A stretch of 28,198 nucleotides of DNA from an uncultured Aquincola sp. (GTDB lineage: Bacteria; Pseudomonadota; Gammaproteobacteria; Burkholderiales; Burkholderiaceae): the NCBI GenBank assembly GCA_937883885.1, contig CAKZXL010000721.1, positions 1 to 28,198 on the forward strand, given 5' to 3'. The stretch's first letter is position 1; each line of letters opens with the position of its first letter. A program made the position numbers and the translations under genes. The notes below the pieces were generated by a model. It was not told the origin of the DNA and did no database searches. It saw nothing but the letters and a program-made list of their open reading frames with translations. This document shows positions 921 through 27,452 of the stretch, piece by piece.

Positions 921-955
921 TCTCGCCCCGGGAACCGTGCGTGGCGCTTGGGCAT

Positions 956-1507: not shown

Positions 1508-1552
1508 CGCTCGAAGGCCCTGGTCAATGGCGTGGGTTCGCAGACCCGGCGC

Positions 1553-12645: not shown

Positions 12646-13284
12646 TCAGGCACCCTTCTTTTCGAGACCGATGAGGTGCTCGGCCACCGCCAACGACTTC
12701 TCGTTGGAACCGGCCATTGACCCGGAAGTGAGCCATCGGCCGTTGACCCCGATCGACGGCGTTCCTTGGAACTTGTACCCCGTAGCCAGCAAGGTGGCCT
12801 GCTTCACCTTCGTTGCGACCGAGAACGAGTTCAGAGCGCCCACAAAGCGGGCTCGGTCGACCCCATTCTTGGCCGCGAAATCGGCAAGGTCCTCGGGCCT
12901 GTCGAGACGCCTGCGCTCGACGTGCAAGGCGGTGAACACCTTGCCGTGCAGCTGCTCCACCAGACCGAGCGCTTCGATCGCGAAGAACAACTGCTGGTGG
13001 ACCACCATCGGGCCCGCACGGAACGCAACCGGGATGCGCCGGAACCGAACGTCGGCAGGCAACTTCTTCTGCCACGCGTCGATCGTGGGCTCGAAAGCAT
13101 GGCAGTGTTCACAGCCATAGGCGAAGAACTCGAGCACTTCGACCTGCTTCGGGTCCAGAGTAGGTTGGCGCGGTGACACGGCAACGTAGTGCTTGCCTTC
13201 GACCAGCCGCTCCTGTGCGGCAACGAGCGCAGGTGGGGCGGCAAGCGAGACGGCGGTGATCTTGGAGAACTGGCGGCGGTCCAT
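12646..13284 (-). CDS. dsbA: DsbA-type thiol:disulfide oxidoreductase with CEHC active site
   Basis: This 212-residue periplasmic thioredoxin-fold oxidase introduces disulfides into exported proteins. It has an N-terminal signal (MDRRQFSKITAVSLA, with a weak Tat-like RR), then EVLEFFAYGCEHCHAFEP with active cysteines C58 and C61, the helical insert, and the cis-proline loop GTPSIGVNG. The usual CPHC is CEHC here, which would change the redox potential. It is close to the DsbA/DsbL group of betaproteobacteria. A MerR-type promoter (13344-13314) stands 30 nt upstream of the ATG, which suggests metal-induced expression and sets it apart from a housekeeping dsbA. It can pair functionally with the DsbB-like gene at the window start. 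Confidence 0.92.
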   Translation of the reverse strand: MDRRQFSKITAVSLAAPPALVAAQERLVEGKHYVAVSPRQPTLDPKQVEVLEFFAYGCEHCHAFEPTIDAWQKKLPADVRFRRIPVAFRAGPMVVHQQLFFAIEALGLVEQLHGKVFTALHVERRRLDRPEDLADFAAKNGVDRARFVGALNSFSVATKVKQATLLATGYKFQGTPSIGVNGRWLTSGSMAGSNEKSLAVAEHLIGLEKKGA

Positions 13285-13313: not shown

Positions 13314-13344
13314 ATTCTTGAACATGAAGTCGCTACAGAGTCAA
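13314..13344 (-). promoter_or_regulatory. MerR-type promoter of dsbA
   Basis: Reading leftward, the -35 is TTGACT (13344-13339), then exactly 19 bp, then -10 AAGAAT (13319-13314). The left half-site ACTCTGTAG matches the PbrR/CadR operator arm; the right arm (CTTCATGTT) is degenerate. The over-long 19-bp spacer is the hallmark of promoters that MerR-family activators untwist. The -10 ends 29 nt before the dsbA ATG, like the other MerR-type sites in this window. Confidence 0.6.
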
Positions 13345-13419
13345 GCGCAACCTGGCTGCTTCGAGAAGGAGCTGCACGACAACGCAACGGCCGCTATACA
13401 AACCGTCGCTGCGCTGCCC

Positions 13420-13811
13420 TCAGCCGGTGAACTGAAAACCTAGTCCGTCCGTGTCCGTGAGATCAGGGCAAGGACAGTGCAACGTGGGTGGCGATGTCAA
13501 GGACTGGCTGCGGCCGAGCGCCTCATCAGCCGCTGCGTCGGCTGCGCCGCCGAGGGCGCGACGCCGTTCGTGCCCGTACCCGCCGGCAGCCGAGTCCGCT
13601 TGTAGGTCGTGTCCGCCACCAGATCCAAACGGCCCTCGCGGCGCCACTGCCCGGCAGCGTCGCGCGTCATCCTGTAGCCGTCGCAGCCCCCTGTTGCCGA
13701 GCGTCCGAAAGATCGTCTCGATGAACGGGACCGTACGGTCTGCGCCAAGCAGTCCGCCCGCCCGGCCCGTTCGCCGATCAGCATCGTGGATGGACGCTTC
13801 GGAAACAAGAC
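13420..13811 (-). other. Possible decayed coding region, unassigned
   Basis: Between dsbA and the TRAP genes the minus strand holds two frames with protein-like stretches: one ending around TVPFIETIFRTLGNRG (about 13690-13740), and a second continuing GCDGYRMTRDAAGQWRREGR then LDLVADTTYKRTRLPAG (about 13590-13690). They abut in a way that suggests one gene with an indel. I do not recognise a family and no start codon with a ribosome site is clear. The rest of the interval shows nothing supportable. Confidence 0.25.
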
Positions 13812-13842
13812 TTGACTCAGTAGCAACTGGAGATTGTCCAAT
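13812..13842 (+). promoter_or_regulatory. Orphan MerR-type promoter facing a remnant region
   Basis: TTGACT (13812-13817), a 19-bp spacer, and TCCAAT (13837-13842). The spacer holds CAGTAG-CAA-CTGGAG, a partial version of the PbrR/CadR dyad. The next ATG (13874) is 31 nt past the -10, the same distance as in the other sites, but the reading frame there is short and looks decayed. It may be a leftover promoter of a lost metal gene that now could drive the truncated TRAP genes. Confidence 0.45.
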
Positions 13843-13873
13843 GGAAGCTCCCTGCGCGATTCGGAACCAAGCC

Positions 13874-14128
13874 ATGAACCAAACCACGCCCAATCGCAGC
13901 GAATGCGGCTCAGCTGCCACATCCCGCTCGCATCCATCGCGCGCTGCCGGATCGGTGGTCCTGGCTGCCGGGGATCCTGGGGTGGATCGGCAATTGCGGG
14001 GGGCGCCTGCCGTGCTGGGCGTCCTCCTGCCCTGGAGGATCACGCGCGGAACCGGCATATCCAAGATCATTGACGTGTCGCCGTGCCGAGGCGGACCGAG
14101 GCTTGGCCAGCTTGAGGTCAGCCCGTGA
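13874..14128 (+). pseudogene. Short Cys-containing ORF behind the orphan MerR-type promoter
   Basis: This 84-codon frame starts MNQTTPNRSECGSAATSRSH. The cysteine/serine-rich beginning loosely recalls the N-terminus of the window's PbrA (ASCGSAACES), but the remainder does not resemble any metal transporter I know. A second frame alongside contains GILGWIGNCGGRLP, so a frameshift is possible. It overlaps the start of the truncated dctQ frame. Support comes only from the well-placed promoter; it is most likely a 5' remnant of a deleted gene. Confidence 0.25.
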
Positions 14129-14441
14129 AGCGAGCGCTCCTCGCCGCTCTGCAGGTCGCCATCTCGCGGGTCTCCTGCTGGTGCTGTTGCCGCTTTGTGC
14201 CGCCGCCGTGTGGGTGACCTGGCCGCAGGCGGTCGCTTCGTTCATGACGGGGGAGACGCGTGCCAGCCGCGAGAGCCTCAGCGAGTTTCCCGCCTGGATC
14301 ATGAAGGGCATGCTGCCGCTCGGCTTCTTCAGCCTCGCCACGCAGGGCGCCGCTGAGGCCGTGCGCTGCGTGGCCTTTCTGGCCGGCGTCGCGCCCAGGC
14401 CGCTGGGCATCGAGCACCCGGATCGCAGGGGGTTGGCATGA
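14070..14441 (+). pseudogene. dctQ: TRAP transporter small subunit DctQ, N-terminally truncated
   Basis: Only the C-terminal half of a DctQ-type subunit is recognisable: from about residue 24, SAPRRSAGRHLAGLLLVLLP, a TM, then ASRESLSEFPAWIMKGMLPLG and a second TM. Full proteins have four TM helices and about 160-200 residues; the first two helices are missing and the upstream DNA does not encode them in another frame. The only in-frame start before the homology is a TTG (14070). It ends in an ATGA overlap with dctM, so the original operon order dctQ-dctM is preserved. The cut near 14120 marks a deletion or insertion endpoint. Confidence 0.7.
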
Positions 14442-15853
14442 ATCCGGAGTTGCTTGCGCCCTTGATGTTCACGACATTGGTCGTGGTGCTTCTGGCCGGC
14501 TTTCCCGTGGCGTTTTCGCTCGCGGCTGTGGCTGCCGCTTTCGCGGTGCTGGGCGTGGCACTGGGGCAGTTCAACCCACCGTTCCTGCTGGCCATGTCGC
14601 TGCGGGTGCAAGGCATCTTCAACAGCGACAACTTCCTGGCCGTGCCGCTGTTCGTGCTGATGGGGCTGATCCTCGAGCGCACAGGCGTTGCCGAAGACAC
14701 GCTGCTCGCGCTGAGCCGGCTGTTCGGCCGCGCGCCGGGCGGCTTGCTCTACGCCACGATCACCGTCGGCGCCGGCCTCTCCGCGATCACCGGCTTCGTC
14801 TCGGCCTCGGTCATCGCCATGGGCTTGATCGCACTGCCCGCGATGCTCAAGGCCGGCTACGACGCGCGCCTGGCCACCGGCTCCATCGCGGCCGCGGGCA
14901 CCCTGGCGCAGATGCTGCCGCCCAGCCTGGTGCTGATCGTCCTTGCCGAGCAGGTGGAAGTCCCGCTGATCGACATCTTCCACGCGGTGCTGCTGCCCAG
15001 CGCAATGCTGGTGGGCCTGTACCTTGTCTTCGTGCTGGTCGCAACGGCCTGGCTGCCACGGCTCGCCCCGCCCATCTCAGCCCAAGGTGAATCGTCGCGT
15101 ATGCGGATGTGGCTGCAGGCGGCAAGCGCGGCCGGCGTTCCCTTGGGGCTGATCCTCCTGATCCTTGCGTCCATCTACTTCGGCGTCGCGACGCCGACGG
15201 AAGGCGGTGCCATCGGCGTGTGCGGCGCGGTGGCGATCGCAGCGGCCAGGAAGCGGCTGGCGCAGGGTCGGCTCAGCCAGGCACTGACGAACACCGGGGT
15301 GTTGTGCTCCAGCGTGATCTTTCTGCTGCTCGGCGCGTCGTTCTTCACGCTCGTGTTTCGCGGCTTCGACGGACCGGTCTGGATCGAAGGGCTCTTCAGC
15401 CACTTGCCGCAGGGGCAGCTGCCGTTCCTCGTGGCTGTCACGGCAGGCATCTTCCTGCTCGGCTTCTTCCTGGACTTCTTCGAGATCGCGTTCATCGTGG
15501 TGCCGCTCATCGCTCCCGTCGCACGCAAGCTGGGTGTCGACATGGTGTGGCTCACGGTGATGATCGCCGTGGTGTTGCAGACCTCGTTCATGCATCCGCC
15601 GTTCGGCATCGCCCTTTACAACCTGCGCAGCGTGGCGCCCGCCACAGTCCGGACCACGCAGATCTATGTGGGCGCCATTCCCTTCCTGGCCATCCAGTTG
15701 CTGATGGTGGTCCTGTTGGTGGTCTTCCCGGGCTTGGCGGCCACGGATCAGGTCCAGCACCGCGCCACTCAGCAGGAGATCGACGACGCGCTCCGCCCGC
15801 CGCCCGCCGACCCTGTTCCGGACCCCGGCCTTTCAGACTTTGAGAAGAAGTGA
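14438..15853 (+). CDS. dctM: TRAP transporter large permease DctM
   Basis: This 471-residue inner-membrane subunit of a Na+-coupled tripartite (TRAP) uptake system for organic acids consists mostly of hydrophobic helices. It has the DctM signatures NSDNFLAVPLFVLMGLILER, GFVSASVIAMGLIALPAML and GSIAAAGTLAQMLPPSLVLI, and in the second half ATPTEGGAIGVCGAV. These resemble the subgroup annotated for mannitol/chloroaromatic compounds. It is complete and overlaps the dctQ stop by 4 nt. The partner DctQ is truncated and no DctP binding protein is in the window, so the transporter is probably non-functional here unless partners lie elsewhere. The C-terminal ~35 residues are a charged Pro/Asp-rich tail. 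Confidence 0.92.
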   Translation: MNPELLAPLMFTTLVVVLLAGFPVAFSLAAVAAAFAVLGVALGQFNPPFLLAMSLRVQGIFNSDNFLAVPLFVLMGLILERTGVAEDTLLALSRLFGRAPGGLLYATITVGAGLSAITGFVSASVIAMGLIALPAMLKAGYDARLATGSIAAAGTLAQMLPPSLVLIVLAEQVEVPLIDIFHAVLLPSAMLVGLYLVFVLVATAWLPRLAPPISAQGESSRMRMWLQAASAAGVPLGLILLILASIYFGVATPTEGGAIGVCGAVAIAAARKRLAQGRLSQALTNTGVLCSSVIFLLLGASFFTLVFRGFDGPVWIEGLFSHLPQGQLPFLVAVTAGIFLLGFFLDFFEIAFIVVPLIAPVARKLGVDMVWLTVMIAVVLQTSFMHPPFGIALYNLRSVAPATVRTTQIYVGAIPFLAIQLLMVVLLVVFPGLAATDQVQHRATQQEIDDALRPPPADPVPDPGLSDFEKK

Positions 15854-15950
15854 TGTCCCATCCCCAGGGCATTCGAATCCGAAGCGCCTGTCGCGTTCAA
15901 CACCCACCGCTCCGAGGTTCCGGACGGTGAGCAAGCGCAGAACCAGCTGC

Positions 15951-16424
15951 CTACCTGGACACGAACCGCAACCTCGGCTGGCGGTGGCCAACCAGGGCAG
16001 CGGCGCCAGTTCCATGTACAGCGCCCTGCCCGCGAGACTTGACGCTCTTCAAGCCATCCAAGACTCCACACTCGGCGGCCACACCATCGCAATGTCTGCG
16101 TAGCGCCTTGAGTTCCTGCCGCAGTTGCTTCAACTCGCGGATGCGTCGGGCGACGTGCTCGATGTGCTCGTCCAGCACGTCATTGACGGCCTGACAGTTG
16201 TCGCGCGGCGCATCCTGGGAGCGCAGCAGCGCACGAATCTCATCAAGCGTCATGTCCAGCGAACGGCAATGCCGTATGAAGGCCAGGCGCTCCAGGTGCT
16301 CGGGTTTGTAGAGCCGATAGTTACCCTCGCTTCGCGGCGGTTCTCCAAGCAGGCCCTCGCGCTCGTAGAAGCGGATGGTCTCGACCTGGGTCTGGGTGAT
16401 CTTTGCGAGTTCGCCGATCCTCAT
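15951..16424 (-). CDS. pbrR: MerR-family metal regulator, PbrR/CadR type (end of pbr operon)
   Basis: This DNA-binding activator has 157 residues. The ATG at 16424 (MRIGELAK) is preferred because GGAG sits 6 nt upstream; 16436 is in frame. The winged helix is QVETIRFYEREGLL ... NYRLY. After the long dimer helix come the metal ligands that define Pb/Cd/Zn sensors: C77 (RDNCQAV), C112 (RRHC) and C119 (AECGVL). The C-terminus continues about 35 residues beyond the usual end and lacks a His-rich tail. It lies last on the same strand as pbrA-PAP2-ORF-lspA, not divergent from pbrA as in the classical Cupriavidus arrangement. It probably acts on the pbrA promoter at 21.0 kb and perhaps on the related sites elsewhere. 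Confidence 0.9.
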   Translation of the reverse strand: MRIGELAKITQTQVETIRFYEREGLLGEPPRSEGNYRLYKPEHLERLAFIRHCRSLDMTLDEIRALLRSQDAPRDNCQAVNDVLDEHIEHVARRIRELKQLRQELKALRRHCDGVAAECGVLDGLKSVKSRGQGAVHGTGAAALVGHRQPRLRFVSR

Positions 16425-16533
16425 GGACAACTCCATTCATGAACGCACATGGTGCCTCGCCAGCCCGATAGCCACCTCTCGCTTCAATCGTCCCATCGAG
16501 AGCAGCCGCTCCGAGGTTTGCGCCGGCTGAGAT

Positions 16534-17034
16534 TCAGGAGCCAGCAGGTGAGGCCGGCTTCGCATCGCCGTACCCCAGAAGCGATGCCAGTGCGACAGCG
16601 CCCCCGGTGATCGCCATGTCTGCGATGTTGAACGCTGGCCAGTGCACGCCGCGGAGGTGAAAGTCGAGGTAGTCGATCACCTGCCCACGCGCGACGCGGT
16701 CGAAGGCGTTGCCCAGCGCTCCGCCAAGGATCAAGCTGTAGGCAAGGGCTTCGAGGTGGCGCATCGGTCTGGCCAGCATCCATGCCAACCAAATCGATGC
16801 TCCCAGCGCAATCGCGAAGAGGAACCAGCGCTGCCAACCTCCGGCACCTGCCAAGAAGCCAAATGCCGCGCCTGGGTTCAGGACATGGACCAAATTGAAG
16901 AACGACGTCACCTCAAGTGACCAGCCCAACGGAGTGGTCAGGTCGATGAAGGTCTTGGCGGCTTGGTCGAGGACAAGCACGAGGAACGCCATGCCGTACC
17001 AACGGGCTTTGCGATCTGGATCTGTCATTTGCAT
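16534..17034 (-). CDS. pbrC: Lipoprotein signal peptidase, PbrC-like (second lspA)
   Basis: This 166-residue LspA homologue has LVLDQAAKTFI, FFNLVHVLNPGAAFGFLAG, LGNAFDR with catalytic D112, and FNIADM with catalytic D139; four TM spans. In known lead operons an LspA-like protein (PbrC) accompanies the phosphatase PbrB, sometimes fused, and is thought to be needed for the exporter-phosphatase system. Here it is a separate gene downstream of a PAP2 phosphatase. Its ATG directly abuts the stop codon of a small Cys-rich frame (TAG then ATG). It clearly diverges from the lspA at 956-1507, so the two are not a recent duplication. The symbol follows from context. Confidence 0.9.
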   Translation of the reverse strand: MQMTDPDRKARWYGMAFLVLVLDQAAKTFIDLTTPLGWSLEVTSFFNLVHVLNPGAAFGFLAGAGGWQRWFLFAIALGASIWLAWMLARPMRHLEALAYSLILGGALGNAFDRVARGQVIDYLDFHLRGVHWPAFNIADMAITGGAVALASLLGYGDAKPASPAGS

Positions 17035-17232
17035 CTACAAGGTCGCGGGAATCGGTGCATGGCGTCGCAGAGGACCGTGGCTTTCACTGTCGGAGTGCAT
17101 GAAGGTTTGAGCGAACGGCCTGCATCTGGAACCGCACCAACCAGCGACCTCAGCGCATCGACATGGCCATCGCCGAATGCTCTGGTCAATTTTGACGTCG
17201 GCGACCAGTTCCAGCGCGAAGCAAGCGCTCAT
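17035..17232 (-). CDS. Candidate small Cys-rich protein between the phosphatase and lspA
   Basis: A 65-codon frame exactly fills the gap between the PAP2 gene and lspA: its ATG overlaps the phosphatase stop (ATGA) and its TAG touches the lspA ATG. The product has five cysteines (C4, C24, C26, C33, C37; local pattern CRC-x6-C-x3-C) and two His downstream, with no signal peptide. The known lead operon contains a small Cys-rich cytoplasmic Pb-binding protein, PbrD, but I see no clear similarity in sequence or spacing. Third codon positions look less uniformly G/C than in neighbours, which weakens the case. It could be a real translationally coupled metallothionein-like gene or decayed linker DNA from a former PbrB-PbrC fusion. 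Confidence 0.4.
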   Translation of the reverse strand: MSACFALELVADVKIDQSIRRWPCRCAEVAGWCGSRCRPFAQTFMHSDSESHGPLRRHAPIPATL

Positions 17233-17852
17233 CGCCTTCGCCCGCAGACAGGGAGTCCGACGTCAACCCAGCGCGCCAGTTGGTTGACGACCACCACGCA
17301 AGCCCAACCCAGAGTGAAGCCTGCCAGCACGTCCGCAGGGAAATGCGCTCCAAGCGCAACACGCGACCAGCCGACCCCCACCATGAACGTCAGCAGGGCG
17401 ACCCTTGCTGGCCAGCCGAAGAGAGGCCAGAGCGTCGTCGCAAGCACGGCTGCATACGTCGCGTGCCCGCTGGGCAGCGCGTAGAGGCTGTCAGGCGTGC
17501 CCAGGACACGGAAGGCCGTTTCGCCCAGCACCGTCGAAGGCCGAGGGAAGGCCAAGGCCGCTTTGGCGGCAGCACCGACCGACAAGGCGAACAGGAGGCC
17601 GACCACAAACCTGGTCAAAACGATCTTGACCCGCATGGCGTGGCCGCTGGACTGGCTGCGACTCCACAGCAGAAGCACCGCAACGACAGCAGGTGCACCC
17701 CAATAACTGCCCAGCCAGGTCAGCGACTCGGGCAGCCAGAGCCAAGCGTCGGGAACGGCGCGGTTCATGGACAGGAAGAGGTCCAAGTTCGCGCCGCCCC
17801 AGTCGTACAGCCAGTGCCTGAACCAGTCGCCTGCGGATGCCAGCGCCTGCAT
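17229..17852 (-). CDS. pbrB: PAP2-family undecaprenyl-pyrophosphate phosphatase, PbrB-like
   Basis: This is a 207-residue membrane phosphatase with the three acid-phosphatase motifs in order: KAALAFPRPS (K-x5-RP), PSGHAT and SRVALGAHFPADV (SR-x5-H-x3-D), set among about six hydrophobic segments. A longer frame reaches back into pbrA, but the ATG at 17852 is 5 nt after the pbrA stop and gives a normal N-terminus. In the Cupriavidus lead system PbrB hydrolyses C55-PP and releases phosphate outside the membrane, where it traps exported Pb(II). The tight spacing to pbrA supports that role here. Ordinary cell-wall lipid recycling is the alternative. Confidence 0.88.
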   Translation of the reverse strand: MQALASAGDWFRHWLYDWGGANLDLFLSMNRAVPDAWLWLPESLTWLGSYWGAPAVVAVLLLWSRSQSSGHAMRVKIVLTRFVVGLLFALSVGAAAKAALAFPRPSTVLGETAFRVLGTPDSLYALPSGHATYAAVLATTLWPLFGWPARVALLTFMVGVGWSRVALGAHFPADVLAGFTLGWACVVVVNQLARWVDVGLPVCGRRR

Positions 17853-17857
17853 GCCGC

Positions 17858-20800
17858 TCAGGCCACCTTGGCCTTGAGCAGCCTGAGGCCGTTGAAGACC
17901 ACCAACAGGCTCGCCCCCATGTCGGCGAAGACAGCCATCCACAGCGTGGCCATCCCCATCAGGGCAAGCGCCATGAACACGGCCTTGATCCCCAGCGCAA
18001 ACACGATGTTCTGCTTCAAGATGGCGCCGGTCTTGCGGCTGAGGCGAATGAACTCCGGGATCTTGCGCAGGTCGTCGTCCATCAGGGCGACATCGGCCGT
18101 TTCGATTGCGGTGTCGGTGCCGGCCGCGCCCATGGCGAAGCCGATGCTGGACTTGGCCAGTGCGGGCGCATCGTTGATGCCGTCGCCGACCATGCCCACC
18201 GTGCCGTGCGTGGCCAGTTCAGCCTCCACGGCCGCGAGTTTCTCTTCCGGCAACAGGCTGCCACGGGCATCGTCGATGCCCACGTTCCTGGCAATCACGT
18301 TCGCGGTCTGCTGGTTGTCGCCCGTGAGCATCACCGTGCGCACACCCATGCCATGCAATTCGGCGATGGCCTGCAGGCTGGTCTCGCGCACCGTGTCCGC
18401 CACGCCAATCACGGCCAGCACAGCCGACTCAGTTGCGATGGTGATCGCGGTCTTGCCTTCGGACTCGAGCTTCTTCAGCGCGGCCTCGGCCGCCTCGTTG
18501 CGGATCCCCAGTTCCTGCAGCAGCCGCGGGTTGCCCAGGTAGTACCACTGACCCGAGATGCGGCCCTTGACGCCCCGACCCGTGATCGCCTCGAAGCCGT
18601 CGACCTCGGCCAGGTCTTGGCCATGCTCTCCCTTCCAATGTGCGGTGACCGCACCGGAAACCGGATGGTCGGACCGTGTGGCCAGGCTCGCGGCCAGCCG
18701 CAGGGCATCGCGCTCCTGCGTGCCGAGGGCCACGACATCGGTCACAACGGGCTTGCCCTGCGTGATCGTTCCGGTTTTGTCGAAGGCGAGCGCCTTGAGT
18801 TGGCGGCCCTGCTCGAGGTAGGCGCCGCCCTTGATCAGGATGCCGCGGCGCGCCGCGGCGGCCAGGCCACTGACCACCGTCACGGGCGTGGCGATGACCA
18901 GGGCGCAGGGACAGGCGATCACCAGCAGCACCAGCGCCTTGTAGATCCAGTCCATCCACGCTCCGCCAAGGAACAGCGGAGGCACGAGCATCACCGTCAG
19001 CGCCACGGCAAAGACTGCCGGCGTATAGACGCGCGCGAACTGGTCGACGAAGCGCTGCGTCGGCGCGCGGCTGCCCTGGGCTTCCTCCACGGCCTTGATG
19101 ATGCGGGCCAGGGTCGAATGCGTGGCCTCGGCCGTGACCTTGTAGATAAATGAGCCGGTCTCGTTGATGGTCCCCGCGAACACCGTGTCGCCCACGGCTT
19201 TCGCCACGGGAATGCTCTCGCCGGTGATCGGCGCCTGGTTGACAGCGGACTGGCCGCTCTCCAGCACGCCGTCCAGCGGGATGCGCTCCCCGGGCCGAAT
19301 CCGCACGAGTTCCCCGAGCGCCACCGTCTTGGCCGGCACTTCCTGCCAGCTGCCATCCGGTTGCTGCACCGTCGCCTTCTCCGGTGCCATCGCGAGCAAT
19401 CCGCGGATCGCGTTGCGCGCGCGGTCGAGGGACAGCACTTCGATGACTTCGGCCAGCGCAAACAGGAACATCACCATCGCGGCCTCGGGCCATTGCCCGA
19501 TCAGGATCGCTCCCGTCACGGCGATGGACATGAGCGCATTCATGTTCAGGATGCCGCTCTTCAGGGCGATCCAGCCCTTCTTGTAGGTGGGCCAGCCGCC
19601 CGTGGCGATCGACACCAGCGCCAGCGCGATGACGGGCCAGGCGTTGTCCTTGCCAGTGCTGAAAGCAATGACTTCGGCCACCGCCGCGCTGACTCCCGCC
19701 ACCGCCATCAGGGCCCACTGGCGGCGGCTCACCGAGGGCTTGGGGGCCGTCTCGCTCTCGGCAGCCCGATCCACGTCGGGCACGGCCTTCATGCCGATCG
19801 CATGCAACGCCGCCGCCACTTCCGCCGGAGGAAGGGAATGGGTCACCGTCAGTTTGCGCTGCATGAGATTGAACTCGAGGCCCTGCACCCCTGCCATGTG
19901 CTGCAGCTTCTCGCGGATCAACCCTTCCTCGGTCGGGCAGTCCATGTTCTCGATGCGATAAACGCTTTGCTGGCCGCTACCGGCTGCCGGCGCCGCCGGC
20001 TCGGCGGGTGGCAGGCCGATATCCTTGAGCGCCCGCACGATGGTCTCGGTGGACGGCAGCGTGTGGTTCACCGACAGCTTGCGCTGCATCAGGTTGAAGT
20101 CCAGCCCTGCGACGCCGGGCATGTTGCCCAGCCGCTTGCGAATCAGGCCTTCTTCCGTGGGGCAGTCCATCTTCTCGATGAGGAAGGTGTCCGTGCGGGC
20201 CGCTGCGGCAGCGCCTGCCGTCTTTGGAGTGGCTGGTTCGGGGCGCACCGCAGCGGTGTCGCTGCTCGGCGGCATGCCCAGTTCGGTGAGGGCCTGCACG
20301 ATCGGACCCGTGTCCGCCAGCCGGTGCAAGACCGTGAGCCCTCGCTTGGGCAACTCGAACTCCAGGCTCTCCACGCCTGCGATGGTTCCCAGTCGCTCGC
20401 GTACCTGTCGCTCCTCATTCACGCAGTCCATGTTCGGCACATGAAACTGCGAGCGGGTCACCGGCTGTTCGGAGGAAAGCGCCGTCGCCGGCATGCCGAT
20501 GGACGCGAGCGCGTCGGTGAGGGCGGCGACGTCAGGCAAGCCGTGCTGGACCGTCAGGACGTGTTGCTCGAGGTCGAATTCCAACCCGTCGACACCCTGC
20601 AACTGAGCGAAGCGTTCTCGAATCTGCGCCACCTCGTTGCGGCAATCCATCTTGGGCACATGGAAGCGATCGGTGCGCGGTTCACGCCCCTGTGGTTCCG
20701 GAGGCAGTCCGATTTCGGCCAGCGCGGTCGTCACCGGCCCCAGGTCCTGCAGTCGGTGGAAGACGGTGAGGCTGTGCTGTGTCAGGTCGAACGCCAGGGA

Positions 20801-20974
20801 CTCCACACCGGCGATCTGCCCCAGGCGTTGACGAATCTGCCGCTCCTCGCTCGGGCAGTCCATCTTCTGGATATGGAACACCGTCGTCGTAGCCGACTGG
20901 GCACTACCGACCAGTGGTTCCTTGGACAGGGACTCGCACGCGGCGCTGCCGCATGAGGCGTTGCTCGAGGTCAT
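17858..20974 (-). CDS. pbrA: Pb/Cd/Zn-exporting P1B-2 ATPase PbrA with five N-terminal HMA domains
   Basis: This metal efflux ATPase of about 1038 residues is clearly longer than the usual ~700-800. The ATG at 20974 is chosen for its GGAGAAAG ribosome site; an open frame reaches 21115 but crosses the promoter. After a Cys-containing lead (C8, C13) come five tandem ferredoxin-like HMA modules, with metal motifs MDCPSEE (C40), MDCRNEV (C111), MDCVNEE (C184), MDCPTEE (C271) and MDCPTEE (C346). These are the single-Cys-plus-Glu form typical of PbrA relatives, not CxxC. The core has ITGESIP, TM6 ACPCALVIATP (near 687), DKTGTITQG (near 730), HPVSGA, GDGINDAPAL (near 931) and the TM8 ADMGASLLVVFNGLRLL Asp motif of Pb/Zn/Cd pumps. 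A MerR-type promoter lies upstream and the PAP2 phosphatase follows by 5 nt. Confidence 0.95.
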   Translation of the reverse strand: MTSSNASCGSAACESLSKEPLVGSAQSATTTVFHIQKMDCPSEERQIRQRLGQIAGVESLAFDLTQHSLTVFHRLQDLGPVTTALAEIGLPPEPQGREPRTDRFHVPKMDCRNEVAQIRERFAQLQGVDGLEFDLEQHVLTVQHGLPDVAALTDALASIGMPATALSSEQPVTRSQFHVPNMDCVNEERQVRERLGTIAGVESLEFELPKRGLTVLHRLADTGPIVQALTELGMPPSSDTAAVRPEPATPKTAGAAAAARTDTFLIEKMDCPTEEGLIRKRLGNMPGVAGLDFNLMQRKLSVNHTLPSTETIVRALKDIGLPPAEPAAPAAGSGQQSVYRIENMDCPTEEGLIREKLQHMAGVQGLEFNLMQRKLTVTHSLPPAEVAAALHAIGMKAVPDVDRAAESETAPKPSVSRRQWALMAVAGVSAAVAEVIAFSTGKDNAWPVIALALVSIATGGWPTYKKGWIALKSGILNMNALMSIAVTGAILIGQWPEAAMVMFLFALAEVIEVLSLDRARNAIRGLLAMAPEKATVQQPDGSWQEVPAKTVALGELVRIRPGERIPLDGVLESGQSAVNQAPITGESIPVAKAVGDTVFAGTINETGSFIYKVTAEATHSTLARIIKAVEEAQGSRAPTQRFVDQFARVYTPAVFAVALTVMLVPPLFLGGAWMDWIYKALVLLVIACPCALVIATPVTVVSGLAAAARRGILIKGGAYLEQGRQLKALAFDKTGTITQGKPVVTDVVALGTQERDALRLAASLATRSDHPVSGAVTAHWKGEHGQDLAEVDGFEAITGRGVKGRISGQWYYLGNPRLLQELGIRNEAAEAALKKLESEGKTAITIATESAVLAVIGVADTVRETSLQAIAELHGMGVRTVMLTGDNQQTANVIARNVGIDDARGSLLPEEKLAAVEAELATHGTVGMVGDGINDAPALAKSSIGFAMGAAGTDTAIETADVALMDDDLRKIPEFIRLSRKTGAILKQNIVFALGIKAVFMALALMGMATLWMAVFADMGASLLVVFNGLRLLKAKVA

Positions 20975-21005
20975 CGCGTCTTTCTCCGAACTTCTGACTG
21001 CATCA

Positions 21006-21036
21006 AAGTTACACCCTCTAGCCGCTACAGGGTCAA
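21006..21036 (-). promoter_or_regulatory. MerR-type promoter/operator of pbrA
   Basis: Reading leftward: -35 TTGACC (21036-21031), 19-bp spacer, -10 TAACTT (21011-21006), 31 nt before the pbrA ATG. The spacer holds a near-perfect dyad, ACCCTGTAG and CTAGAGGGT separated by CGG (21033-21013), with one mismatch in nine between arms. This is the classical PbrR/CadR/MerR architecture, in which the activator corrects the over-long spacer when metal binds. Confidence 0.85.
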
Positions 21037-21155
21037 GCGGTTTCTTCGGGTACTGGCGACCTGGCCCCAGGAGGGCTTCAATGGCCGAGGTCCAGCAGTT
21101 GGAGGGCCGCGCCATCCACCTTCGGTGCAGCAGTGCTGAACACCCGCATTGTTGT

Positions 21156-21174
21156 TAGAATGATTCTCATTTGC
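21156..21174 (+). promoter_or_regulatory. Fur-box-like palindrome before the permease
   Basis: The core AATGATTCTCATT (21159-21171) matches 11 of 13 central bases of the classical Fur box; over the full 19 bp I count 13 matches. It is AT-rich in an otherwise very GC-rich region and lies 15 nt upstream of the preferred ATG of the permease. This suggests iron repression by Fur. Confidence 0.6.
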
Positions 21175-21185
21175 ATTTCAAGCTC

Positions 21186-23123
21186 ATGGCACTCCCATCC
21201 TGGTTCCGGGTCTGCGCTTCGTTGCTTTGGGCGCTGGCCCTGTTCTTCTCGACGGCTGCTCATGCGGCTGAAGCGGATGTCCGCCGCATCTGGCAAATGC
21301 TGGACTACCTGGCCGTGGACTACGGCGGCGCCGTCAAGAACGGGGCCGTGGCCAGTGCCTCAGAGTTCGAGGAGATGCGCGAGTTCGCCAAGACGAGCCA
21401 GACCAAGATCGCGGCGCTTGAACCGCATCCCGAGCGAGCCGCCCTGGTCGCCGAGGCGCAGATGCTGTCCGCTGCCATCGAAGCGAAGAAGAGTTCCGAG
21501 GAGGTCGCGGCCTCGGCCAAGTCGCTGGCCAATCATCTTCTTGCCGTCTACCCGGTGCCGTCCGCACCCGCCGCCCCGCCGCTGGTGGGGACGGCTGCGG
21601 CGACGTACCAAGCCCAGTGTGCGTCTTGCCACGGAGCGACCGGCAACGGTGATGGGCCTGCAGGCCTCAAGCTGGATCCGCGACCGGTGGCCTTCACCGA
21701 CAAGGACCGAGCGCGAGAACGCAGTGCGTTCGCGCTCTACCAGGCCATCAGCCAAGGCATCGAGGGCACTGCCATGCCTGGCTTCGCCACCATCCTCGAG
21801 CCCGACCGATGGGCGTTGGCGTTCTTCATCGGCCAGTTTGCCCACGCCAATGGCGAGGCAGTTGCAGGGCAGAAAGTCTGGGCCGAGAACGCCGCCGTGC
21901 GGGCTCAACTGACCAGCCTGAGCGCGCTATCGCGCATGACCCAGGCCGACCTCGCGAAGCAGGTGGGTGACGAACCCGCGTCGCTGGCCATGGCCTATCT
22001 GCACGCGCACCCGGAAGCCGTCGTTCAGAAGCGTGTCCTGAGTTTCGATGTGGCGCGCCAGAAGTTGGCGCAGAGTCTTGCCGCGGTCGAGAAAGGCCAG
22101 CCCGGCCAGGCCACGGAGCTGGCGCTCTCCGCCTATCTGGACGGTGTCGAACCCATCGAGCCCACGCTGGCCACGCGAGACTCGGCGCTGATGGGGCGCA
22201 TCGAAACCGGGATGGGCAGGTACCGCGCATTGCTCACCAGCAACGCAGCCATGCCGGAGTTGCTGGCCCAGGTGGACGTCATCCATGGCCTGTTCAAGGA
22301 AGCCGACGAACTGCTCGGCTCCAGCGCGGACGCGACCGCCGCCTACCTGGGCAGCCTGACCATCCTGGTGCGCGAAGGGCTGGAAGCGCTGCTGGTGGTG
22401 GTGGCCATGATTGCCTTCCTCCGCAAGGCCGAGCGCAACGACCTGCTGCGCTACGTGCATGCAGGCTGGGTCGGTGCGATGGTGCTGGGCGTCGTGACCT
22501 GGGGCGTCGCAACCTACTTCGTTGGCATCAGCGGCGCCAGCCGCGAGGTCACCGAGGGCTTGTCCTCGCTCTTTGCTGCCGTCGTGCTGCTGAGCGTCGG
22601 AATGTGGATGCACCAGAAGAGCATGGCCGGTGCCTGGCAGAAGTACATCCACGACAAGTTGTCCGCGGCGCTGAGCCGCAAGTCCGCATGGTTCATGTTC
22701 GGCTTGTCGTTCATCGCGGTCTATCGCGAGGTGTTCGAGACGATCCTGTTCTACGCCGCGCTGTGGGAGCAGGGAAATCACCAGTCCGTGCTGGGCGGAC
22801 TGGCCAGTGGTGTTGCCATCCTGGGCATCGTCGCGTTGGCCCTGCTGCGTTTCAGTGCACGCCTGCCGATCGGCAAGTTCTTCTCCTGGAGTTCCGCGCT
22901 GGTCGCCGTGCTGGCAGTGGTCCTCACCGGGAAGGGCATCGCCGGCCTGCAAGAAGCGGGATGGCTCGGCGCGTCCTCATTCGACGGGCCGCGCATCGAC
23001 CTGCTGGGCCTCCATCCGTCCCTGCAAGGTGTCATCGCCCAATTGCTGATGGCCGCGCTGGTGGTCGCCGGCTTCCTGTGGAACGCTCGCGCAGCTCGGG
23101 AGGCCGGCGCCAAGCCGGTGTAG
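21186..23123 (+). CDS. pbrT: Cytochrome c-FTR1 permease fusion, PbrT/EfeU-like metal uptake
   Basis: This membrane protein of about 645 residues has a signal peptide, a helical periplasmic part, a c-type haem motif CASCH (residues 145-149, followed by GATGNGDGPAG), then a seven-TM FTR1-type permease. The two metal-handling REGLE-type motifs are LVREGLEALLVVV (near 395) and YREVFETILFY (near 514). FTR1/EfeU proteins import iron with oxidation; PbrT of Cupriavidus is this type and raises Pb uptake. The ATG at 21186 is chosen; a TTG at 21171 is in frame but lies in the Fur-like box. It is divergent from pbrA, as pbrT is in known pbr loci, but no pbrR sits between. The haem domain may receive electrons from Fe(II) oxidation. 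Confidence 0.9.
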   Translation: MALPSWFRVCASLLWALALFFSTAAHAAEADVRRIWQMLDYLAVDYGGAVKNGAVASASEFEEMREFAKTSQTKIAALEPHPERAALVAEAQMLSAAIEAKKSSEEVAASAKSLANHLLAVYPVPSAPAAPPLVGTAAATYQAQCASCHGATGNGDGPAGLKLDPRPVAFTDKDRARERSAFALYQAISQGIEGTAMPGFATILEPDRWALAFFIGQFAHANGEAVAGQKVWAENAAVRAQLTSLSALSRMTQADLAKQVGDEPASLAMAYLHAHPEAVVQKRVLSFDVARQKLAQSLAAVEKGQPGQATELALSAYLDGVEPIEPTLATRDSALMGRIETGMGRYRALLTSNAAMPELLAQVDVIHGLFKEADELLGSSADATAAYLGSLTILVREGLEALLVVVAMIAFLRKAERNDLLRYVHAGWVGAMVLGVVTWGVATYFVGISGASREVTEGLSSLFAAVVLLSVGMWMHQKSMAGAWQKYIHDKLSAALSRKSAWFMFGLSFIAVYREVFETILFYAALWEQGNHQSVLGGLASGVAILGIVALALLRFSARLPIGKFFSWSSALVAVLAVVLTGKGIAGLQEAGWLGASSFDGPRIDLLGLHPSLQGVIAQLLMAALVVAGFLWNARAAREAGAKPV

Positions 23124-23236
23124 GGAGCGAAGGAAACCAGTCACCCACACTGCTTGCAGGCAGGTTGTGCCGCTTCAGTCACAGGTTTGCTCGCCAACAT
23201 CGCTACCCAGGGTTGATGAGAGACCCGACATCGCCA

Positions 23237-23299
23237 ATTCCGGGCATCGCCGGAATCGAACTCCCACCCAAGATCTTCTGCCACTGGACGCGACAGTGG
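23237..23299. terminator. Paired hairpins between convergent pbrT and DUF302 genes
   Basis: Two stem-loops lie in the 200-nt convergent gap: ATTCCGG/CCGGAAT with a 6-nt loop (23237-23256) and CCACTG/CAGTGG with a 7-nt loop (23281-23299). Neither has a clear T-run. Their place between convergent stop codons makes a bidirectional terminator role plausible. Confidence 0.35.
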
Positions 23300-23321
23300 G
23301 CGCTACTCCAGGCCCCAGGCG

Positions 23322-23846
23322 TCACACCCCGCGCAGCACTCTCTCGAGGCGGCTGCGCACCTCGGCCGCGATCAGGGTGATCTCCGGGCGCCCGACCAGA
23401 CCCAACACCGCGCCCGGGTCCATGACCTCGACCACCGTTGCGCCGGTGTCATTGGTGCGCACCACGACGTTGCAGGGCAGCAGGGCTCCGATCTGCGGCT
23501 CGGCCTCGAGGGCGCGTTGGGCGAACTGCGGGTTGCAGGCGCCGAGAATGCGGTACGGCGGCATTTCGAGCCCGAGTTTCTTCTTCATCGTCGCCGCGAC
23601 ATCAATCTCGGTCAGAACCCCAAACCCTTCCTTGGCGAGATCCGCTGTGACGCGCGCGATGGCCTCGTCATGCGTCAGCGACGTTGTCTTGCCGAATGCG
23701 AGATCCTGGAGTGTGAACTTGCGGGTGTTGCCGCAGTGGTACTCAAGCCGATGACATCGAACAACGCCACGGCCACTCGCACGCGGCTTCCTTCGCCTGC
23801 CCCCGAGGGTGAATGGGACGGGCGTCGTGGACGTGGACGTGACCAT
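23322..23846 (-). CDS. DUF302-domain protein, start uncertain
   Basis: The C-terminal ~130 residues are a full DUF302 domain: AFGKTTSLTHDEAIARVTAD, EGFGVLTEIDV, MPPYRILGACNPQFAQRAL and LLPCNVVVRTND, with the conserved ACNP and LPCN cysteines. DUF302 proteins are small alpha/beta proteins often found beside metal or redox genes; their biochemical role is not settled. The only ATG in frame (23846) yields an N-terminus that is the out-of-frame reading of a His-rich ORF, and no ATG, GTG or TTG lies close to the domain. The true 5' end is unclear: it may be coupled to, or once fused with, the His-rich ORF under the MerR-type promoter at 23.95 kb. Confidence 0.75.
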   Translation of the reverse strand: MVTSTSTTPVPFTLGGRRRKPRASGRGVVRCHRLEYHCGNTRKFTLQDLAFGKTTSLTHDEAIARVTADLAKEGFGVLTEIDVAATMKKKLGLEMPPYRILGACNPQFAQRALEAEPQIGALLPCNVVVRTNDTGATVVEVMDPGAVLGLVGRPEITLIAAEVRSRLERVLRGV

Positions 23847-23898
23847 CGCCGTGATCGTGCCGGTTTGTGTTGCCGCCTTCGGTATGGGAATGGCTCAT
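23743..23898 (-). CDS. His-rich mini-ORF under a MerR-type promoter
   Basis: A 51-codon frame begins MSHSHTEGGNTNRHDHGDGH and continues VHVHDARPIHPRG, with nine His among the first 30 residues, resembling the metal-binding N-termini of cation-diffusion facilitators. AGAGGA lies about 8 nt before the ATG. The ATG is 29 nt past the -10 of the MerR-type promoter, exactly the geometry of the other sites. The last 15 residues (with two Cys) overlap the DUF302 frame. It is either a small metal-binding peptide, the N-terminus of a His-rich DUF302 protein with a frameshift, or a remnant of czcD. Confidence 0.5.
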   Translation of the reverse strand: MSHSHTEGGNTNRHDHGDGHVHVHDARPIHPRGQAKEAACEWPWRCSMSSA

Positions 23899-23912
23899 CG
23901 CAAGAATCCTCT

Positions 23913-23941
23913 TTGACCTTGCTTCCATTGAAAACCTTGTA
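23913..23941 (+). promoter_or_regulatory. Candidate promoter of the second merR gene
   Basis: TTGACC (23913-23918), 17-bp spacer, CTTGTA (23936-23941) read rightward toward the regulator at 23996. It overlaps the leftward MerR-type promoter, so the regulator bound to its operator would repress its own gene, as in mer operons. Confidence 0.4.
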
Positions 23942-23957
23942 GCCGGTGTAGAGTCAA
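23927..23957 (-). promoter_or_regulatory. MerR-type promoter of the His-rich/DUF302 unit
   Basis: Reading leftward: TTGACT (23957-23952), 19-bp spacer containing CTACACCGGCTACAAGG, -10 TTCAAT (23932-23927), then 28 nt to the His-rich ORF ATG. The right arm (CTACAAGGT) matches the PbrR/CadR operator; the left arm is less regular. Location between divergent merR and target genes is the textbook arrangement. Confidence 0.7.
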
Positions 23958-23995
23958 GTCCCTCTCCCCATCAGGAAACCTGAAAGCTTGGAGCC

Positions 23996-24439
23996 ATGAA
24001 GATCGGAGCGCTGGCCGAGGCCACCGGAACACCCGTCGAGACGATCCGCTTCTACGAGCGCGAGGGACTGCTGCCGCCGCCGGCCCGGGCGGACAACAAC
24101 TACCGCGTCTACCTGGCGACGCACGCCGAGCGGCTCGCCTTCATCCGGCAGTGCCGCAACCTGGACATGGCGCTCGACGAGATCCGGGCCCTCATCGCAC
24201 TGCGGGAATCGCCCGCGCAGGATTGCGGCGAGGTCAACGCCCTGCTGGACGCGCATATCGGCCATGTGGCGCACCGCATTCGCGAGCTGCGAGCGCTGGA
24301 GAAGGATCTGAAGTCACTGCGCGCGCGGTGCGCGTCGCCCCTCGCCTTGGCGGATTGCGGCATCCTCAACGGCCTCGACCGCGCCGCCGCCTCGCCTGCG
24401 GCCCCGGCCAAGCGGCGCCACGTTCATGGCGCTCACTGA
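23996..24439 (+). CDS. cadR: MerR-family metal regulator, CadR/PbrR type with His tail
   Basis: This is a 147-residue activator. Winged-helix DNA-binding part: PVETIRFYEREGLLPPP ... NNYRVYL. The long dimerisation helix is followed by the metal-loop cysteines C77 (QDCGEV), C112 (RARC) and C121 (ADCGIL), the Pb/Cd/Zn set. Unlike the other copy it ends in a short His-rich tail (RRHVHGAH), as in CadR, where it forms a second metal site. It is divergent from the His-rich/DUF302 unit with overlapping promoters between, so it probably autoregulates. The DNA-recognition residues are very like those of the first copy, so both may share operators. Confidence 0.92.
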   Translation: MKIGALAEATGTPVETIRFYEREGLLPPPARADNNYRVYLATHAERLAFIRQCRNLDMALDEIRALIALRESPAQDCGEVNALLDAHIGHVAHRIRELRALEKDLKSLRARCASPLALADCGILNGLDRAAASPAAPAKRRHVHGAH

Positions 24440-24743
24440 ACCGGCGCAGGCCTCGGACCAGATGACCGAACTGCAATCTGCCGGTTCCGAAACTGTTCCC
24501 GGAAGACCTTCGGAGTTCCTCGTCGTGCCATTGGGGCATTCGGCTGGGCGCCTGCCGGCCGCACCATCATGACGAACTCATGAGATCACCCAGGCCGAAC
24601 CGCCGCGCCGTCGAGGCAGCCAAGAACGCACCGCCGGACTTCGGCACGAAGGTTGCGATTGCCTACGGGCGCGATCCTTCCGACCGCCGGCGATCGCGGT
24701 TCGAACCCAACTCCCGCATCGACTGGCATCGCCCAGTGCGGAC
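24440..24743. other. Spacer without recognised gene
   Basis: Roughly 300 bases between cadR and the promoter of the transglutaminase-like gene. Frames on both strands are short and compositionally chance-like. A GGTTCGAACCC stretch at 24698-24708 looks like a tRNA T-loop but has no supporting cloverleaf. Confidence 0.4.
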
Positions 24744-24774
24744 TTGACCCGGCAGCGGCTTCAGGGATTGCAAT
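24744..24774 (+). promoter_or_regulatory. MerR-type promoter of the transglutaminase-like gene
   Basis: TTGACC (24744-24749), 19-bp spacer, TGCAAT (24769-24774), then 36 nt to the ATG. The spacer dyad is ACCCGGCAG and CTTCAGGGA around CGG, six of nine arm positions matching and the same CGG centre as the pbrA operator. It sits just downstream of cadR on the same strand. Confidence 0.6.
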
Positions 24775-24810
24775 TCGGCTGACGCCGCCTGGAGCCACCC
24801 TGATCGAGTC

Positions 24811-25521
24811 ATGTCCGACACACCTTCTTCACTGCTGCGCAACACGCCGCTGCTCGACACCGAACATCCCGACATCGAGCGGCTGGTCGCCGACCGAGGG
24901 TGGCGCGCGCTGCCCGAGCGCGAACGGATCGGCGCGGTCTACGACTTCGTCCGCAATGAGATCGCATTCGGCTACAACGAGGCGGACGATCTGCCGGCAT
25001 CGCGCGTGCTGGCCGACGGCCATGGACAGTGCAACACCAAGGGCACACTGCTGATGGCCTTGCTGCGCAGCGTCGGCGTGCCGTGCCGTTTCCACGGCTT
25101 CACCATCGACAAGGCGCTCCAGAAGGGCGCGATCACTGGGGCTGCGTATGTCCTCGCGCCGCGGCGCATCCTCCACAGCTGGGTGGAGGTCTGGTTCGAG
25201 GGACGATGGGTCTGTCTCGAGGGATTCATCCTGGACGCGCAGTACCTTCGCAGCCTGCAACGCCGGTTCCCCGGTGCGCGACGCTTCTGCGGCTTCGGCG
25301 CCGCCACCCGGGACCTGTCGGCGCCGGACGTCGAGTGGCGTGGCCAGGACACCTTCATCCAGAAGGAGGGCATCGTCGACGACTTCGGGACCTTCGACGA
25401 TCCCGACGCGTTCTATGCCCGGCACGGCGCCAACCTGCGCGGTCCGAAGCGATGGCTGTTCGTGCACGCGGTCCGCCGCTGGATGAACGACAACGTGGCG
25501 CGCGTCCGCGCCGGGCAGTAG
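24811..25521 (+). CDS. Transglutaminase-like cysteine protein
   Basis: This 236-residue cytoplasmic protein has no signal peptide. It contains a transglutaminase-like core: GHGQCNTKGTLLMALLRSVG (nucleophile C74), then the His segment ILHSWVEVWFEGRWVCLEG (H122) with an acidic residue following (E137 or D142), the usual Cys-His-Asp order of papain-like transglutaminase/protease folds. The N-terminal helix region and a C-terminal ~80 residues are specific to a subfamily found beside metal genes; their substrate is unknown. Its promoter carries a MerR-type operator, so it is probably induced by the same metals as pbrA. It may be a protease, peptide hydrolase or amidase. Confidence 0.85.
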   Translation: MSDTPSSLLRNTPLLDTEHPDIERLVADRGWRALPERERIGAVYDFVRNEIAFGYNEADDLPASRVLADGHGQCNTKGTLLMALLRSVGVPCRFHGFTIDKALQKGAITGAAYVLAPRRILHSWVEVWFEGRWVCLEGFILDAQYLRSLQRRFPGARRFCGFGAATRDLSAPDVEWRGQDTFIQKEGIVDDFGTFDDPDAFYARHGANLRGPKRWLFVHAVRRWMNDNVARVRAGQ

Positions 25522-25565
25522 TGATGTCCTGCACGCTGCCACTTAGCCTCGCCTGCTCAGGGTCA

Positions 25566-25586
25566 ACCCTGTAGCCGCTACACTCT
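25566..25586 (+). promoter_or_regulatory. MerR-like dyad abutting the czcI start codon
   Basis: ACCCTGTAG and CTACACTCT separated by CCG, ending 6 nt before the czcI ATG. The left arm is identical to that of the pbrA operator. A 14-bp palindrome CAGGGTCAACCCTG (25558-25571) overlaps it. A 19-bp-spacer promoter here would place the -10 on the start codon, so the activator model does not fit unless transcription is leaderless (TACACT at 25579-25584 could be a -10) or the site is repressive. Confidence 0.5.
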
Positions 25587-25592
25587 GAATCC

Positions 25593-25964: not shown

Positions 25965-26117
25965 TCGGCGGGGCGGGTTCGTTCTCCTTCTGAACCTCGT
26001 CCGCGCCTGAGCGCGTTGCCGTAGCTCGCTCTCGGCAACCCGTTCGGGTCGGCGCGACCGCATGGGTCGCGGCTCGCCGGTCTCCCGTGTTCCCCTTCTT
26101 TCACACTGGAGCATCGG

Positions 26118-27392: not shown

Positions 27393-27452
27393 GCCCTGGC
27401 GTCGCGCACGAAACGAACACGCTCTAGCGAACCTAATCAGGAATCCCACCCC

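What the first reader, a model, noticed from the sequence alone, without database searches (positions are those of the whole stretch)
13314..24774. A shared 19-bp-spacer operator family defines a candidate regulon
Sites at 13314-13344, 13812-13842, 21006-21036, 23927-23957 and 24744-24774 share TTGAC(C/T), a 19-bp spacer and a GTAG/CTAC-like dyad, and each lies 28-37 nt from a start codon. Together they would tie PbrA export, the phosphatase/LspA pair, DsbA, the DUF302/His-rich unit and a transglutaminase-like protein into one response with two MerR regulators. The combination looks like an extended, undescribed lead/cadmium defence system.
Basis: partly seen in the sequence, partly recalled or inferred. 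Interest (0 to 1): 0.75.

Follow-up and report, generated by a model that had tools for sequence, protein, structure and literature searches.

The report
Cadmium-switch promoters driving a transglutaminase-like gene
The five DNA sites look like genuine on-switches for cadmium and lead defence genes, and one of them leads to a little-noticed enzyme-like gene that many related bacteria place behind the same kind of metal switch.

Summary
The five sites exist as described and score far above chance (30-38 bits; no random hit of 10). They fit the known CadR/PbrR-type (MerR-family) promoter: TTGAC[C/T], 19-bp spacer with an imperfect dyad. Both local MerR proteins pass the curated CadR-PbrR model. 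The operator is not new; the window is a pbr operon carried by a ~22-kb insert that replaced the cadA body of a cad-czc locus.

The proposed membership is partly right. PbrA/PAP2/LspA/PbrR: canonical. DUF302/His-rich: not a unit; the site belonged to cadA, of which about 50 codons remain. DsbA: strong site, none seen at (distant) relatives, though Dsb genes recur beside such promoters elsewhere. Site 13812: target uncertain.

The transglutaminase-like gene is the real find. In 80 fetched relatives it lies behind such a promoter in 61 (directly 35, after a CDF pump 9, after a P-type ATPase 17); czcI- or czcC-like genes follow in 44. On an Acinetobacter plasmid it is divergent from CadR; on five alphaproteobacterial plasmids it has a related MerR-type promoter. 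My searches found no paper that links it to CadR or PbrR. It has a transglutaminase fold with invariant Cys and His; its reaction is unknown.

The parts
13314..13344 (-). CadR/PbrR-type promoter-operator facing dsbA
   Evidence: 30.9 bits; start codon 29 nt on
12646..13284 (-). DsbA-like thioredoxin-fold protein (CEHC, read by eye)
   Evidence: PF01323 60.7 bits
13812..13842 (+). CadR/PbrR-type promoter-operator, target uncertain
   Evidence: 30.2 bits; ATG 31 nt on opens an 84-codon ORF; the ORF around it has no Pfam match
13874..14128 (+). 84-codon ORF after site 13812, followed by dctQ (256 bp missing against G001) and dctM
14438..15853 (+). TRAP transporter large subunit DctM
   Evidence: PF06808 254.1 bits
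15951..16436 (-). MerR 1, CadR/PbrR type, same strand and downstream of pbrA-PAP2-lspA
   Evidence: TIGR02047 174.8 bits, cut-off 151.45
16534..17034 (-). LspA, signal peptidase II (PbrC-like)
   Evidence: PF01252 134 bits
17229..17942 (-). PAP2-family phosphatase (PbrB-like; likeness recalled)
   Evidence: PF01569 68.8 bits
17858..20974 (-). PbrA/ZntA-type P-type ATPase with five HMA stretches, 1038 aa from the ATG 31 nt after the site
21006..21036 (-). CadR/PbrR-type promoter-operator of pbrA
   Evidence: 36.8 bits
21171..23123 (+). PbrT-like cytochrome c/FTR1 permease, divergent from pbrA
   Evidence: PF03239, PF13442
23322..23846 (-). DUF302 ORF at the edge of the insert; not supported as a regulon member
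   Evidence: PF03625
23743..23898 (-). 51-codon His-rich ORF = remnant of the CadA N-terminus
   Evidence: compared by eye with CadA starts in L079-L082
23927..23957 (-). CadR/PbrR-type promoter-operator of the former cadA
   Evidence: 37.8 bits; same place as the cadA promoter in L080-L082
23996..24439 (+). MerR 2, CadR
   Evidence: TIGR02047 177.7 bits
24744..24774 (+). CadR/PbrR-type promoter-operator of the transglutaminase-like gene
   Evidence: 31.4 bits, 43.6 in G001; sites at the same place in relatives
24811..25521 (+). Transglutaminase-like protein, 236 aa
25559..25589 (.). Sixth dyad just before czcI, without a usable promoter
   Evidence: 9.0 bits
25593..25964 (+). CzcI
   Evidence: NF045614 100.8 bits, cut-off 100
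26118..27392 (+). CzcC-like outer membrane factor
   Evidence: PF02321 93.6 bits
956..1507 (-). LspA of the former cadA side, parted from the cadA promoter by the insert
   Evidence: PF01252

Best explanation
The five sites are CadR/PbrR-type promoters. A CadR/PbrR dimer sits on the dyad in the over-long 19-bp spacer; when it binds its metal (Cd, Pb or Zn) it distorts the DNA so that RNA polymerase can use the -35 and -10 boxes (mechanism established for the family, inferred here). The window is a cad-czc locus (cadA-lspA-PCuAC / cadR-czcE-transglutaminase-czcI-czcC) whose cadA body was replaced by a ~22-kb insert with a pbr operon, so PbrA probably now serves in place of CadA (inferred). The transglutaminase-like protein is a conserved effector of this and related MerR-type metal responses, made together with pumps. 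Most likely it is a cysteine-dependent enzyme that acts on a thiol or glutamyl substrate during thiophilic-metal stress (inferred from fold and invariant residues only).
For: Site scores and controls; regulators over the TIGR02047 cut-off; synteny with L080-L082 and the CadA N-terminal remnant; 61 of 80 fetched transglutaminase loci (56 of 74 distinct proteins) behind a site, the pump gene between being confirmed in 9 of 9 CDF and 17 of 17 ATPase cases; 73 sites in 846 kb, 65 on the gene's strand within 2.5 kb upstream, the other 8 at cadA/cadR divergons; on plasmids a site before the gene or its operon in 9 of 11 fetched regions, 4 by the CadR matrix (37.8-43.9 bits: L163, L195, L196, L202) and 5 by a looser pattern; fold and invariant C74, H122, E137, D142 in 49 aligned sequences.
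Against: No binding or expression data. 19 of 80 loci show no site; 13 of them have at least 1.8 kb upstream: five from other phyla or classes by title (L130, L141, L149, L157, L158), three Undibacterium or Oxalobacteraceae (L132, L145, L146), the rest L128, L129, L140, L147, L152. Eight of the 35 direct sites (L096, L106, L114, L123, L124, L126, L127, L131, sorted by eye) have an ACCTTgAAG-type dyad nearer to CueR/HmrR than to CadR, so the regulator may differ. The 80 loci are the best of 140. On the five alphaproteobacterial plasmids the site just before the gene stays under 10 bits with the CadR matrix, the looser pattern was drawn after seeing them, and their regulators fall below every equivalog cut-off; the Acinetobacter regulator is annotated Cd(II)/Pb(II)-responsive but is below the TIGR02047 cut-off (143.1 against 151.45). 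No signal-peptide or activity test was run.
Confidence: 0.85

Rival explanations
1. The transglutaminase-like gene is a passenger that travels with cad-czc genes and happens to be read from their promoter; it has no role in metal defence.
For: In 26 of 80 loci it follows a pump gene behind the same site, in 44 of 80 a czcI- or czcC-like gene follows it, and 189 plasmid records carry it.
Against: In 35 of 80 loci the site is directly before the gene; in 11 of these (L096, L105, L106, L114, L115, L118, L120, L122, L123, L126, L133) the fetched stretch has no BLASTP match to my cad, czc, CDF or MerR queries, although 5 of the 11 have the CueR/HmrR-like dyad. In 5 of 5 fetched alphaproteobacterial plasmids with a MerR gene nearby it has its own MerR-type promoter.
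Confidence: 0.2
2. The window holds a purpose-built extended lead/cadmium system in which DsbA, DUF302 and the TRAP genes are functional members (first reader, carried further).
For: Sites at 13314, 13812 and 23927 are strong. Dsb genes stand beside MerR-type promoters on other plasmids: Sphaerotilus site-lspA-dsbD-sco-dsbA, the site lying 166 nt before lspA inside an annotated hypothetical gene; alphaproteobacterial DsbB-DsbA-PCuAC genes divergent from the MerR gene.
Against: No site at 29 DsbA, 12 DUF302 and 24 DctM relatives outside G001, although the DsbA and DctM relatives are distant; DUF302 is at a recombination edge; dctQ lacks 256 bp against G001.
Confidence: 0.25
3. The sites are ordinary sigma-70 promoters that share -35 boxes by chance.
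For: TTGACY itself occurs 21 times in the window, and six places fit the loose TTGACY-N19-NNN[AC][AT]T form.
Against: Matrix scores at least 20 bits above the best random hit; reversed-pattern control 0 against 8 in G001 and 3 against 71 in 200 genomes.
Confidence: 0.01

Closest known systems
pbr lead-resistance operon of Cupriavidus metallidurans pMOL30 and PbrR promoter PpbrA
   Same: PbrT, PbrA, PbrC-like LspA, PbrR and (likeness recalled) PbrB-like PAP2; TTGACT, 19-bp spacer, imperfect dyad (PMC1526738 parts 1-2; PMC3431237 passages)
   Different: Here pbrR follows pbrA-PAP2-lspA on the same strand and pbrT is divergent from pbrA; PbrD not looked for; the operon lies in an insert inside a cad-czc locus
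CadR regulon (cadA-cadR divergon; CadR of Pseudomonas aeruginosa)
   Same: Divergent cadR, operator between -35 and -10
   Different: Extra member: transglutaminase-like gene with czcI-czcC; PMC12301328 (passages read) added a zinc-ribbon gene to the PAO1 regulon, no transglutaminase in those passages
Transglutaminase-like putative cysteine proteases (PF01841; PDB 3isr)
   Same: Core fold, invariant Cys at a helix start and His on a following strand
   Different: 15% identity to 3isr over 154 aligned residues; ~236-aa family with invariant Glu137 and Asp142; no credible sequence match in the PDB
Phytochelatin synthase (recalled)
   Same: Also a cysteine enzyme of metal stress, acting on gamma-glutamyl peptides (recalled)
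   Different: Recalled as a papain-like fold; no comparison was made

Membership tests
CadR/PbrR regulators | Match above the curated TIGR02047 cut-off | tested here: met
   174.8 and 177.7 bits against 151.45
CadR/PbrR regulators | At least two of three metal-binding cysteines | tested here: met
   Read by eye translations (DNCQ, RHCD, AECG in MerR 1; QDCG, RCAS, ADCG in MerR 2); criterion from PMC1526738; equivalence of positions not aligned
CadR/PbrR operators | Dyad inside a 19-bp spacer between TTGAC[CT] and a -10 box | tested here: met
   dyad imperfect in all five
CadR/PbrR operators | Binding and metal-dependent activation | not testable with these tools
   needs footprinting and reporter assays
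pbr operon | pbrT, pbrA, PAP2, lspA, pbrR together | tested here: met
pbr operon | pbrD lead-binding protein | not tested
   no search made
Transglutaminase-like superfamily | PF01841 above cut-off and core fold | tested here: met
Transglutaminase-like superfamily | Cys-His-Asp triad | tested here: inconclusive
   C74 and H122 invariant; third residue may be E137 or D142, both invariant in 49 sequences; geometry not measured
Phytochelatin synthase | Sequence or fold match and dipeptidyl transfer on glutathione | not tested
   no comparison or assay

The most novel reading that the evidence does not exclude
A transglutaminase-fold enzyme, found on plasmids and in genomes of alpha-, beta- and gammaproteobacteria, is an unrecognised enzymatic arm of CadR-type metal resistance: it would make or process glutamyl-thiol metal ligands (an analogue of phytochelatin synthase) or repair metal-damaged thiol proteins while the pumps export the ion.
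Probability: 0.15. Interest if true: 0.85.

Novelty: new variant of a known kind. Interest (0 to 1): 0.58.

Why it matters
To my knowledge (recalled) bacterial cadmium, zinc and lead resistance is described mostly as sensing plus export. A conserved cysteine enzyme behind the same switch would add a chemical step that can be tested at once by deletion and assay. The case also shows how operator conservation can separate likely regulon members from passengers in a metal island.

Tried and rejected
DUF302 as regulon member: no site over 5 bits at 12 loci outside G001 nor at G001's second copy. DsbA: no site over 8 bits in the 29 fetched best relatives outside G001. DctM: none in 24 fetched loci outside G001. 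Site C6:179337 of G001 has no clear gene directly behind it. PDB sequence search of the transglutaminase-like protein: only chance matches. Phage collection, E 1e-10: no match. Literature: (open-access library only; listings seen) showed no paper that joins CadR or PbrR regulation with this gene; only the best 15 of 34 and of 238 papers were listed, 10 of 58, 20 of 95, 10 of 28. PMC11236759 (passages) names a transglutaminase-like gene mutated in a cobalt-evolved Rhodobacter; relation not tested. The notebook's count of 72 sites for one search is a slip (71 rows listed), and so is its 13 non-G001 DUF302 loci (12). A first form of this report said that czc genes 'usually' follow; one search counts 44 of 80.

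Full report
Observation. Start codons follow after 29, 31, 31, 28 and 36 nt. They are far from chance: a matrix from 61 distinct sites of other genomes scores them 30.2-37.8 bits, while 4 Mb of Markov-3 sequence has no hit of 10 bits. The matrix rests on sites found with a pattern drawn from the five, so it is not fully independent. In the nearest held genome G001 the pattern (up to 3 mismatches) occurs 8 times and its reversal 0 times; five of the eight are counterparts of these sites, one lies about 28 kb away on the same contig without a clear gene directly behind it, two are divergons of a P-type ATPase and a CadR-like gene. In 200 genomes of the order 71 hits are listed against 3 reversed. 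In 51 site rows examined at such loci (some sites appear twice) 18 gave no ORF by my start rule and five or more gave only short out-of-frame His-rich ORFs; the clear genes, named by eye, were mostly P-type ATPases and CDF pumps, with exceptions: a double-zinc-ribbon protein in L058 (Pfam), a 115-117-aa protein in L065 and L066, a membrane protein in L063.

Identity. This is the CadR/PbrR-type promoter. Permina et al. 2006 (PMC1526738, parts 1-2 of 5 read) describe MerR-family promoters with 19-20-bp spacers and put CadR and PbrR on one branch with similar signals; PbrR was footprinted on TTGACT-19 bp-TTAAAT (PMC3431237, passages). Both MerR proteins of the window exceed the TIGR02047 cut-off. 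So the operator family is known.

Anatomy. Site 21006 faces pbrA-PAP2-lspA-pbrR, with the PbrT-like gene divergent. Site 24744 faces the transglutaminase-like gene, czcI and a czcC-like gene. Site 23927 faces a 51-codon His-rich ORF whose start matches the N-terminus of CadA in L079-L082. Window 1-1804 and 23778-28198 match L081 at 88% and 87-91% on either side of the body of its cadA; the 22 kb between them are an insert. DUF302 therefore sits at the edge of a replacement, and LspA/PCuAC at 450-1507 were parted from the cadA promoter. Compared with G001, the window lacks 256 bp in dctQ, about 230 bp inside a CzcE-like gene (name recalled) and one transposase-bearing stretch. Site 13314 faces dsbA. 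Site 13812 faces an 84-codon ORF followed by dctQM.

Which members are conserved? For the transglutaminase-like gene, the search for related loci found 140 loci and kept 80. A site precedes the gene in 61 of 80: directly in 35, before a CDF gene in 9 of 9 confirmed cases, before a P-type ATPase gene in 17 of 17 (CDF is PF01545 in L087). That is 56 of 74 distinct proteins (counted). Of 73 sites in 846 kb, 65 face the gene from upstream within 2.5 kb and 8 belong to the neighbouring cadA/cadR divergon; none lies elsewhere. Of the 19 without a site, six have at most 1.1 kb upstream (L092, L101, L104, L138, L139, L142) and L140 and L147 have 1.8 kb; in L092, L101, L142 and L147 a CDF or ATPase ORF runs to the contig end or near it; eleven have 4.4 kb or more and no site, among them L128 and L129 behind an ORF 26% identical to PbrA. 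Eight direct sites have a CueR/HmrR-like dyad (by eye). A czcI- or czcC-like gene follows in 44 of 80; eleven of the 35 direct loci have no match to my metal-gene and MerR queries at all. In 200 genomes of the order only 2 carry the gene at E 1e-20, G001 and G210, the latter right behind what reads by eye as the end of an ATPase gene at a contig end. On plasmids 189 records carry it. Of 11 regions fetched, 4 have a CadR-matrix site before the gene or its operon: Acinetobacter L195 (CadR divergent from transglutaminase-CDF, 38.6 bits), Diaphorobacter L163, Shinella L196 and Acidovorax L202 (cadR divergent from ATPase-transglutaminase). Five alphaproteobacterial ones (L161, L197, L198, L199, L201) have a related site (TT[GA]NNNCT..[AT]G-N3-CT..AG, 19-bp spacing) 29-35 nt before the gene; that pattern, drawn after seeing them, hits 14 times in these five loci (two hits overlap) and 0 times reversed. 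Their CadR-matrix score just before the gene is under 10 bits, and the two regulators scanned are MerR-family but below all equivalog cut-offs. Mycolicibacterium L162 shows no site, and in Acinetobacter L200 IS66 genes lie between a MerR gene and the transglutaminase-like gene.

DsbA, DUF302 and DctM served as comparison: no sites at 29, 12 and 24 fetched relatives outside G001, but the DsbA and DctM relatives are at most 53% and 55% identical. Dsb genes do recur near such promoters (Sphaerotilus plasmid L160; alphaproteobacterial plasmids), so DsbA may still be a true member.

Verdict. Observation confirmed; interpretation partly supported; the operator is known, and the conserved transglutaminase-like member was not found in print by the searches listed under Tried and rejected.

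Noticed in passing
1805-23777: A ~22-kb insert replaced the cadA body of a cad-czc locus; it carries alkaline phosphatase, an EptA-like protein, a second P-type ATPase, a CusF-like protein, DsbA, TRAP genes and the pbr operon.
   Followed up: partly
14125-14441: dctQ lacks 256 bp compared with G001.
   Followed up: partly
24590-24619: A CzcE-like gene (name recalled) that is whole in G001 and matched in L079-L084 lacks about 230 bp here.
   Followed up: partly
25559-25589: A sixth CadR-like dyad directly before the czcI start codon, without a matching -35/-10 pair.
   Followed up: no
L058:4458-4488: A CadR-type site before a double-zinc-ribbon protein, like the zrd gene reported for P. aeruginosa CadR (PMC12301328, passages).
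   Followed up: partly
L138, L139, L141, L149, L158 upstream of the transglutaminase-like gene: Deltaproteobacterial/myxobacterial copies share a GAGGAATRCCTCATAT-like dyad instead of the MerR-type site; Undibacterium/Oxalobacteraceae copies share another upstream block.
   Followed up: no
L161, L197-L199, L201: Alphaproteobacterial plasmids carry a module of MerR and transglutaminase-like genes with DsbB, DsbA, PCuAC and SCO genes and, in some, YnfA, CDF, CcdA, M23 peptidase, L,D-transpeptidase and LspA, with several MerR-type promoters.
   Followed up: partly
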